Positions 16,332-16,606 of a DNA stretch of 64,000 nt are shown here, one piece after another; positions within the stretch are counted from its first letter, which is position 1, and the number at the start of each line of letters is the position of its first letter. Under the pieces are notes generated by a model. The model had not been told where the DNA came from. It made no database searches and saw only the letters and a list, made by a program, of their open reading frames with translations. The translations under genes were made by a program, and so were the position numbers. The stretch comes from Pseudofrankia saprophytica (lineage in GTDB: Bacteria; Actinomycetota; Actinomycetes; Frankiales; Frankiaceae), in contig NZ_KI912267.1 in NCBI RefSeq assembly GCF_000235425.2, positions 681,804 to 745,803 of the forward strand, read 5' to 3'.

Positions 16332-16445
16332 CGGCCGGTCAGCATCACACGGGTCGCGCTCTTCCAATTGAGCTAGCGGCGCAGGTGGAGCACCGCGCGG
16401 GGCTTGAACCCGCAACCTCGACCTTAATTTTCCGGACGTCGGCCG
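16332..16445 (-). ncRNA. Permuted-tRNA-like RNA B (candidate Y RNA, YrlA type)
   Basis: Read leftward, the parts of a tRNA appear in permuted order. First comes an anticodon-stem-like strand GGTCG (16423-16419), variable region AGGTT, T-arm with stem GCGGG/CCCGC and loop TTCAAGC (16413-16397), and 3' acceptor strand GCGGTGC (16396-16390). After a 7-base linker TCCACCT come the 5' acceptor strand GCGCCGC (16382-16376, pairs 7 of 7 with one G-U), TA, D-arm GCTC/GAGC with loop AATTGGAA (16373-16358), and CGACC (16356-16352), which closes perfectly on GGTCG. Outside lie an internal loop, a CCGG/CCGG helix (16435-16432 with 16338-16335), a 7-base bulge and a CGG/CCG pair. The acceptor end is thus a closed loop and the anticodon arm opens into a longer stem, the plan of bacterial Y RNAs. 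The RNA ends are estimates. Confidence 0.65.
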
Positions 16446-16472
16446 GGCCGGCGATATGGCCTGTCTTCAGTT

Positions 16473-16606
16473 GTGGAGCGAGAGACTAAGATTCAATGAC
16501 GGCTGCCTCTACCACTGGGCTACCCCGGCAGGTTCGAGCCGGGGAGGGGAATCGAACCCCCGCTGTCACCGCCCTTCATGATCTTGAGTATGAGTCTCAG
16601 CTTCAC
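16473..16606 (-). ncRNA. Permuted-tRNA-like RNA A (candidate Y RNA, YrlA type)
   Basis: Leftward order: GGCGG (16573-16569), variable bases, T-arm GGGGG/CCCCT with loop TTCGATT (16561-16545), acceptor strand CCCCGGC (16544-16538), linker TCGAACCT, acceptor strand GCCGGGG (16529-16523, 7 of 7 pairs), TA, D-arm around GCC/GGC with loop CAGTGGTAGA (16520-16505), and CCGTC (16502-16498), which pairs with GGCGG. Outside the core is an internal loop (CATGAAG/ATTGA), a 5-base helix AAGAT/ATCTT (16585-16581 with 16492-16488), a 7-base bulge CATACTC and a 6-base helix GAGACT/AGTCTC (16598-16593 with 16487-16482), then shorter AGC/GCT and GTG/CAC pairings. This bulged lower stem on a tRNA-like module matches the two-part design of bacterial Y RNAs, where the lower stem binds a Ro protein. 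Exact ends and the identity as Y RNA are inferred. Confidence 0.7.

What the first reader, a model, noticed from the sequence alone, without database searches (positions are those of the whole stretch)
16332..16606. Two tandem RNAs that fold as circularly permuted tRNAs
On the minus strand each unit has T-arm, 3' acceptor strand, a 7-8 base linker, 5' acceptor strand, TA, then D-arm. The acceptor strands pair 7 of 7 in both units although they differ in sequence (CCCCGGC/GCCGGGG and GCGGTGC/GCGCCGC), which shows that each pairs within its own unit and excludes an ordinary tRNA array. T-loops keep TTCRA and D-loops keep GG. The anticodon-stem strands also close on each other (GGCGG/CCGTC and GGTCG/CGACC), so a tRNA body exists whose acceptor end is a closed loop. 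Bacterial Y RNAs of YrlA type are known to mimic tRNA in this way; two in tandem, without a visible Ro protein or RtcB nearby, would be notable.
Basis: partly seen in the sequence, partly recalled or inferred. Interest (0 to 1): 0.9.

Follow-up and report, generated by a model that had tools for sequence, protein, structure and literature searches.

The report
Phage and bacterial double tRNA-mimic RNA
Next to a gene for an uncharacterised protein lies a roughly 345-letter structured RNA element that folds two tRNA-like shapes in shuffled order; the same protein-RNA pair recurs in many bacteria and phages, often among phage tRNA genes, which suggests an undescribed RNA-protein machine that imitates tRNA.

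Summary
In detail: two circularly permuted tRNA-like units lie on the minus strand; shuffled sequence gives 0.05 such units per 64 kb. They are not two separate Y RNAs but, as I read it, two domains of one structured element (about 16264-16607) directly downstream of a DUF7873 (PF25283) gene. That pair is conserved. A covariance model of domain 2 finds the RNA in 77 of 80 bacterial DUF7873 loci and 72 of 80 viral ones (64 of them above the best score seen away from DUF7873). Among 430 actinobacterial genomes, 13 of 13 with DUF7873 have it and 0 of 417 without do. Domain 2's seven helices covary (92% of cells paired; slid controls 39-43%). Hosts include Actinobacteria, Cyanobacteria, Myxobacteria, Chloroflexi, Armatimonadota and phages. 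A Ro-like gene lies elsewhere in this genome, and two of seven DUF7873 genomes gave no Ro match. Acceptor loops are enriched in encoded NCCA. No Rfam family reaches threshold on the element here or in 12 relatives checked; DUF7873 matched no fold clearly; the paper searches found no description. The pair is near certain; function is inferred: most likely a ribonucleoprotein that presents tRNA-like ends to tRNA-handling enzymes or ribosomes.

The parts
16706..17440 (-). DUF7873 (PF25283) protein gene, 244 aa, partner of the RNA
   Evidence: Pfam E 2.4e-105; relatives carry the RNA beside the gene
16264..16607 (-). whole conserved RNA element (5' arm, TLS-1, TLS-2 domain, 3' hairpin); exact transcript ends unknown
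   Evidence: alignment of 86 downstream regions and covariation on 65 of them
16574..16607 (-). 5' arm with U-N-A repeated about every 6 nt; partly pairs with the linker 16504-16462 (possible pseudoknot)
   Evidence: U-N-A spacing 6: 179 observed, 12.9 expected; spacing 12: 113 observed, 9.2 expected, in 84 sequences; helices 1-3
16505..16561 (-). TLS-1: permuted tRNA-like domain (T-arm, acceptor, loop, acceptor, D-arm)
   Evidence: R1 partial hit 16484-16571, 40.5 bits
16530..16537 (-). acceptor loop of TLS-1 (UCGAACCU; does not begin N-CCA)
16462..16504 (-). conserved linker that pairs back to the 5' arm
   Evidence: A4 helices 1-3, weaker than the tRNA-like helices
16295..16458 (-). TLS-2 domain: three closing helices, anticodon-stem equivalent, TLS-2
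   Evidence: R1 full-length hit 98.1 bits, E 4e-24 (the window is one of the 43 training rows); covariation
16358..16413 (-). TLS-2: permuted tRNA-like core
   Evidence: YrlA 33.8 bits, below its cut-off
16383..16389 (-). acceptor loop of TLS-2, UCCACCU: N73-CCA, short spacer, U at -1
   Evidence: enrichment in relatives
16264..16288 (-). 3' hairpin GCCCGGAG/CUCCGGGC with loop AAGGGUAGU, no U run after it

Best explanation
The element is a structured non-coding RNA of about 345 nt, the dedicated partner of the DUF7873 protein encoded just upstream. Shown by comparison: two domains, each with T-arm, closed acceptor stem and D-arm in permuted order, the anticodon stem replaced by a long arm; near-constant association with DUF7873 in bacteria and phages. 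Inferred: (a) the RNA is one molecule and DUF7873 binds it, perhaps on the arm whose U-N-A repeats recur every 6 nt; (b) the acceptor loop (N73-CCA, spacer, U-1, G1) is often a processing site where RNase P and 3' trimming can open the loop and expose a CCA end; (c) the particle uses its tRNA-shaped heads to engage factors that read tRNA shape but not anticodon or acceptor sequence (RNase P, CCA-adding enzyme, elbow-binding nucleases or the ribosome), either to protect translation and tRNA supply in infection or stress, or to guide an RNA-processing enzyme much as Y RNA guides PNPase with Ro (recalled).
For: RNA reality: in A3 (43 sequences) 37 pairs in 7 helices, 92.0% of cells paired (shuffle mean 69.5%, slid 39.1-42.6%), 349 double-change cells (shuffle mean 110.3); in A4 (33 sequences) acceptor and T-arm of TLS-1 98.7% and 99.4% paired. 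Partnership: R1 at 68 bits or more in 77 of 80 bacterial DUF7873 loci (43 of the 46 not used for the model) and at 55 bits or more in 72 of 80 viral loci, 64 of them at 61 or more (some are near-duplicates); 13 of 13 DUF7873 genomes and 0 of 417 others, 4 of the 13 being training rows. Permuted units downstream in 56 of 77 viral loci long enough to test, 0 of 77 on the reverse complement, in reversed letters or upstream. Four distant phages at about 30-33% protein identity keep one or two units (L018, L218, L219, L220). Processing signs, counted only inside the element: NCCA in 47 of 90 TLS-2 loops (shuffled 3.4) and 20 of 67 TLS-1 loops (2.9); TLS-2 has C74 in 86 of 90, U-1 in 68 of 90, G1 in 74 of 90. 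Shape-only reading: every acceptor pair of both heads shows double changes. tRNA context: 7 of the 10 phage regions opened have annotated tRNAs and 35 of 77 viral loci have ARAGORN tRNAs.
Against: No transcript, binding or processing data. Four of 67 TLS-1 loops are 4 nt long, too short for CCA plus spacer; 47 of 67 TLS-1 and 43 of 90 TLS-2 loops do not begin N-CCA, nor does the window's TLS-1 loop, so opening cannot rest on encoded CCA everywhere. TLS-1 is missing or degenerate in some loci (for example L006, L010, L045, L066, L100). Some TLS-2 T-loops depart from TTC (CTC in several cyanobacteria; TGC in Myxobacteria and some Chloroflexi), against a strict need for T-loop modification. DUF7873 is slightly acidic on average (net -2.3) and no fold or sequence search named an RNA-binding relative. 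Three of 80 bacterial loci (L065, L074, L092) and 8 of 80 viral loci lack a clear hit; L149 and L211 are at contig ends and L092 looks rearranged. In L033 the RNA is upstream of the gene, in L200 on the other strand. Bacterial neighbours tested share no family, so context gives no function.
Confidence: 0.5

Rival explanations
1. The units are Y RNAs of YrlA type that serve the cell's Ro protein in trans.
For: Same permuted topology; unit 2 aligns end to end with RF02553 at 33.8 bits; the genome has a TROVE match.
Against: Below the gathering score of 69, and adjacent ordinary tRNAs score as well. The Ro-like gene has a YrlA-like site of its own nearby (38.3 bits, also below the cut-off). Two of 7 DUF7873 genomes gave no TROVE match. 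The constant neighbour is DUF7873.
Confidence: 0.1
2. A tmRNA-like, multi-piece ribosome-rescue RNA: processed, aminoacylated, with DUF7873 in the place of SmpB.
For: Gene order matches permuted two-piece tmRNA (detail recalled; that permuted tmRNA genes exist is stated in passages of PMC10085705); encoded NCCA and U-1 enrichment; one phage tRNA cluster with the module also has a tmRNA match (L013).
Against: No Rfam tmRNA match in the element. G3-U70 in only 8 of 90 and 2 of 67 units. Acceptor pairs drift freely, unlike an RNA with a fixed charging identity. No tag frame was noticed on reading the alignments; no dedicated test.
Confidence: 0.1
3. A decoy: the tRNA-shaped heads titrate tRNA-targeting enzymes, as counter-defence in phages and as a domesticated module in bacteria.
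For: Phage tRNA clusters; shape conserved, sequence free; no anticodon arm; sporadic in bacteria (7 of 396 genomes).
Against: No PADLOC match for the three DUF7873 proteins scanned; no nuclease partner known; a simple decoy would not need a fixed protein and a 5' arm.
Confidence: 0.25
4. A cis-acting 3' element that controls DUF7873 expression or mRNA stability.
For: Usually same strand, median 40 nt after the stop in the 52 loci where the arm was located.
Against: In L033 the RNA lies upstream of the gene; in L200 it is on the other strand; the structure is far more elaborate than a stability element.
Confidence: 0.07
5. A decayed tandem tRNA array.
For: Adjacent ordinary tRNAs give R1 scores up to 57.3 bits in the loci examined.
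Against: Cross-unit acceptors do not pair well (4.2 of 7 against 6.9 within); strong covariation; no anticodon arm.
Confidence: 0.01

Closest known systems
YrlA / bacterial Y RNAs (RF02553) with Ro60
   Same: Permuted tRNA-like module with acceptor end closed by a loop, on a long arm (alignment); known in bacteria and phages (recalled)
   Different: Two modules in one element of about 345 nt; partner DUF7873 instead of Ro; below the Rfam threshold; NCCA-rich acceptor loops; periodic 5' arm; conserved 3' hairpin
Permuted (two-piece) tmRNA
   Same: T-arm, acceptor 3' strand, spacer, acceptor 5' strand, D-arm order (recalled); often CCA before the spacer
   Different: Two tRNA-like domains, no tmRNA match, no conserved G3-U70, no tag frame noticed, DUF7873 instead of SmpB
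Circularly permuted tRNA genes (algae, archaea; recalled, listing of PMC3978253 seen)
   Same: Order of tRNA halves reversed in the gene
   Different: No anticodon arm to make a decoding tRNA; units share one scaffold; protein partner
GOLLD / ROOL large phage RNAs (recalled)
   Same: Large structured RNAs carried by phages, often with tRNAs
   Different: No Rfam match at threshold; smaller; constant protein neighbour; tRNA-like domains

Membership tests
YrlA Y RNA (RF02553) | score at or above the Rfam gathering threshold | tested here: not met
   33.8 and 20.4 bits against 69; no YrlA hit at gathering in the 12 member loci scanned
YrlA Y RNA (RF02553) | encoded near a Ro60/TROVE gene | tested here: not met
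   the only TROVE match is on the other contig; 2 of 7 DUF7873 genomes gave no TROVE match
YrlA Y RNA (RF02553) | permuted tRNA-like module | tested here: met
YrlA Y RNA (RF02553) | Ro-binding helix and Ro binding | not testable with these tools
   no binding data; the outer helix aligns poorly to the model
tmRNA (RF00023) | tmRNA covariance model match | tested here: not met
   no match in the window or at the element in the 12 member loci scanned; the L013 match is a separate place
tmRNA (RF00023) | G3-U70 alanine identity pair | tested here: not met
   8 of 90 and 2 of 67 units
tmRNA (RF00023) | tag-encoding frame | not tested
   none noticed on reading the alignments; no dedicated test was run
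tRNA gene (ordinary or permuted) | anticodon arm and pairing of halves into a decoding tRNA | tested here: not met
   no ARAGORN call in the window; anticodon-stem strands lead into long arms; cross-pairing 4.2 of 7
DUF7873 (PF25283) | Pfam match above cut-off | tested here: met
   352.1 bits against 27
known RNA-binding protein folds | structural match of the DUF7873 model | tested here: inconclusive

The most novel reading that the evidence does not exclude
A third kind of tRNA-mimicking ribonucleoprotein beside tmRNA-SmpB and Y RNA-Ro: one RNA carrying two permuted tRNA heads that RNase P and 3' trimming can open into CCA ends, with DUF7873 subunits reading a 6-nt periodic arm, spread by phages and kept by scattered bacteria to act on translation or tRNA metabolism.
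Probability: 0.4. Interest if true: 0.93.

Novelty: categorically new. Interest (0 to 1): 0.86.

Why it matters
It links a protein family of unknown function, with no clear fold match, to a structured RNA that reached no Rfam threshold, in hosts from several bacterial phyla and in many phages. tRNA mimicry in bacteria is known mainly from tmRNA and Y RNAs (recalled); a double mimic with its own protein, often sitting in phage tRNA clusters, makes the question of what phages and bacteria use non-decoding tRNA shapes for directly testable in cultivable hosts (Streptomyces, Myxococcus, Gordonia and Arthrobacter phages).

Tried and rejected
Single-sequence folding energy as evidence: not significant. 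YrlA membership: rejected. tmRNA membership: rejected. Ordinary tRNA array: rejected. The unit-1 arm as one simple helix: only partly supported; helix 3 is 66.9% paired, helices 1 and 2 (81.9% and 77.6%) cross each other, so a pseudoknot or alternative pairings. R1 scores of 44-58 bits as new members: rejected for the eight loci examined (L115-L120 and L122, L124 less L121 and L123, that is L115, L116, L117, L118, L119, L120, L122, L124), whose matches lie on adjacent ordinary tRNA genes; the other hits below 80 bits, including one of 60.5 bits in G161, were not examined. Function from gene neighbours: 10 proteins from 7 bacterial loci share no family; 3 of the 10 had none. Defence, NCBIfam and PHROG libraries and PDB sequences: no significant match for the DUF7873 proteins tried. 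BFVD row 13 (crAss-like phage protein, probability 0.99, TM 0.46 on the query, but E 0.076) was not followed up. Foldseek and VIA lists name no convincing fold; that absence is not proof of a new fold. A first count of acceptor loops took units from whole loci on both strands; it was repeated inside the element only, with ARAGORN tRNAs left out (1 of 173 sources too short, 3 of 198 units dropped), and only the second is used; the figures barely changed. Both counts keep only units whose acceptor pairs 7 of 7.

Literature: searches listed no paper that by title or abstract start describes this RNA; DUF7873 had 0 papers. The library is open-access only. PMC7824862, PMC9569102 and PMC10085705 were seen as passages; other titles as search listings. 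Two main Y RNA papers are not held; what I say of Y RNAs beyond searches is recalled.

Errors of mine: in alignment A1 L009 was given on the wrong strand, so that row is nonsense; A1 was not used further. In one search a hand-set end for L033 missed its RNA, which one search then found upstream. Notes call the Ro-side sites a canonical Ro/Y RNA locus; bear out only one sub-threshold YrlA-like site, the second weak R1 hit there overlapping an ARAGORN tRNA-Arg.

Full report
What is there. The window is part of a two-contig, 9.98 Mb actinobacterial genome; its DUF7873 protein is 95% identical to those of two Pseudofrankia records, so Pseudofrankia or a close relative is likely. A scan for complete units finds these two and no others on either strand of the 64 kb; 60 shuffles average 0.05.

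Relatives. PF25283 was found in 7 of 396 genomes drawn from the phylum, the window's own included, and the DNA after the gene in each of the other six contained one or two permuted units with different acceptor stems paired 6 or 7 of 7. A scan of the species-genome collection with the window protein gave 100 relatives, of which the best 80 were kept: Frankia and Pseudofrankia, Glycomyces, Actinomadura, Streptomyces, Streptacidiphilus, Kutzneria and others, Chloroflexi, Armatimonadota, Cyanobacteria and Myxobacteria; several, including both Armatimonadota, are metagenome bins. tblastn found 73 phage records (repeated): Vibrio 29, Gordonia 12, Rhizobium 12, Klebsiella 7, Serratia 6, Arthrobacter 3, Pseudanabaena 2, Rhodococcus 1, Microcoleus 1. 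Four plasmid-collection records also matched, one of them of chromosome size.

Structure. I aligned 86 downstream regions (ten loci without a clear or complete region, or with weak RNA, were left out by hand) and, after removing near-identical ones, computed covariation on 65: 46 of the 160 strongest column pairs were at least 80% complementary; many other strong pairs were not, as expected for related sequences, so I do not use that ranking alone. On A3 (domain 2, 43 sequences, aligned by sequence only) a structure of 37 pairs was counted: 92.0% of cells paired against 69.5% in shuffles and 39.1-42.6% when slid; covariation score 0.633 against 0.233 shuffled and 0.107-0.141 slid. The acceptor stem is 99.0% and the T-arm 100% paired, with up to six pair types at one position. 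The structure was partly derived from the same sequences, so the viral set below matters. On A4 (domain 1, 33 sequences chosen to have TLS-1) acceptor and T-arm are 98.7% and 99.4% paired; the arm helices are weaker (66.9-81.9%), and two of them cross. In some loci TLS-1 is missing or reduced while the arm remains (for example L006, L010, L045, L066, L100), so TLS-2 is the more constant head. This, and pairing across the first unit, argues for one RNA rather than two genes; a single transcript is inferred, not shown.

The 5' arm carries U-N-A repeated every six bases: U-N-A pairs six apart occur 179 times against 12.9 expected from letter shuffles, and twelve apart 113 against 9.2 (84 sequences, not corrected for relatedness). 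I read this as a possible repeated protein contact; it is inference.

Association. Model R1 was built from A3. In the 80 bacterial loci, 77 have a full-length match of 68 bits or more, 43 of 46 among those not used in the model; misses are L065, L074 and L092. In 76 of the 77 the RNA is downstream on the same strand; in L033 it is upstream. In 80 viral loci, the best of 209 relatives, none a row of the model though L158 is close to a training phage, 72 have 55 bits or more and 64 have 61 or more; eight do not (L149, L170, L185, L187, L189, L190, L211, L212), of which L149 and L211 are at contig ends and L170 shows a permuted unit after the gene. Several of the 80 are near-duplicates. A structural pattern scan without the model found units in 56 of 77 viral loci downstream (3 of 80 too short), two or more in 18, and in 0 of 77 for each of three controls. 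Whole-genome searches gave R1 scores of 80.6 bits or more in exactly the 7 DUF7873 genomes of the 396, best other genome 57.3; in the window's order 82.6 or more in exactly the 7 of 35, best other 40.0; in each of the 13 the match lies beside the gene. One genome is common to both sets: 13 of 13 against 0 of 417. The window, L005, L007 and L009 (4 of the 13) were training rows, and others may be strains also met. The phylum search used stricter filters that can lose weak matches. I could not repeat this test in other phyla.

Phages. I opened 10 of 73 phage records. Seven have annotated tRNAs around the gene. Units or model matches follow the gene within about 1 kb in nine (Mimi, Phendrix, NiceHouse, Ziko, PA-SR01, K479, TM16, TM2_3B, KpLz-2_45), in three by one unit only (K479, TM16, TM2_3B), and with weak model scores in five (19.7-47 bits). 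In Microcoleus phage My-WqHQDG only weak matches about 1.8 kb away were seen.

Relation to Y RNAs. The same genome has a TROVE match (partial, 51.3 bits, in a 533-aa frame at L128 2377-3978) with one YrlA-like site, 38.3 bits and so below the cut-off, about 1.2 kb upstream; a second weak R1 hit there overlaps an ARAGORN tRNA-Arg. RtcB matches lie elsewhere. The YrlA model scores the window's unit 2 at 33.8 bits, but pairs of adjacent ordinary tRNAs at 36.5-44.5. So the resemblance shows shape, and I do not file the RNA as a Y RNA.

Acceptor ends. Among distinct units inside the element with fully paired acceptors, N73-CCA begins the loop in 47 of 90 TLS-2 and 20 of 67 TLS-1 (shuffled loops 3.4 and 2.9); TLS-2 has C74 in 86 of 90, U at -1 in 68 and G1 in 74; no TLS-2 loop is shorter than 6. 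TLS-1 and TLS-2 were told apart by the D-arm letters, so a few may be misfiled. These are the marks of a tRNA precursor end and suggest that RNase P and 3' processing can open the loop, or that the RNA arose from neighbouring tRNA genes. Four TLS-1 loops of four bases and the window's own TLS-1 loop do not fit opening at an encoded CCA. Acceptor pairs drift freely, which speaks against a fixed aminoacylation identity.

Verdict. The feature is real and larger than reported: a conserved protein-RNA pair. What it does is open. I favour a ribonucleoprotein that offers tRNA-shaped heads to tRNA-handling factors. I call it categorically new because it fails tested defining features of YrlA and tmRNA, reached no Rfam threshold, and no searched paper describes it; the caveat is that the permuted tRNA-like shape itself is known.

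Noticed in passing
window 31604-31662, minus strand: msiK cis-regulatory RNA (RF01747, 66.9 bits).
   Followed up: no
L013 1069-1597: Gordonia phage Phendrix carries a tmRNA match (89 bits), not among the features listed for that stretch, in the same tRNA cluster as the DUF7873 pair.
   Followed up: no
L104, L107, L108 (own genome C1, about 4297700-4300400): Dense chromosomal array of 20 or more tRNA genes by ARAGORN; whether it is mobile was not examined.
   Followed up: no
L033 2603-2772 and 3001-3723: In a deltaproteobacterial MAG the RNA (135.7 bits) lies upstream of the DUF7873 gene instead of downstream.
   Followed up: partly
L092 3001-3681: DUF7873 reading frame of a Microcoleus MAG ends early and runs straight into letters typical of the 3' part of the RNA, so a deletion or assembly join may have removed the stretch between.
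   Followed up: no
DUF7873 model, BFVD match A0A7M1RW91: A 179-aa crAss-like phage protein matches the DUF7873 model with Foldseek probability 0.99 and TM 0.46/0.60 but E 0.076: possible distant relative.
   Followed up: no
Deinobacterium chartae (control genome): Has both DUF7873 and TROVE by the control searches; whether it carries the RNA was not looked at.
   Followed up: no
L128 4921-4992 and 5159-5231, minus strand: Beside the own genome's Ro-like gene, an ARAGORN tRNA-Arg with no RF00005 match in the E 0.001 list lies next to the YrlA-like site; it might be a second Y-type RNA.
   Followed up: partly
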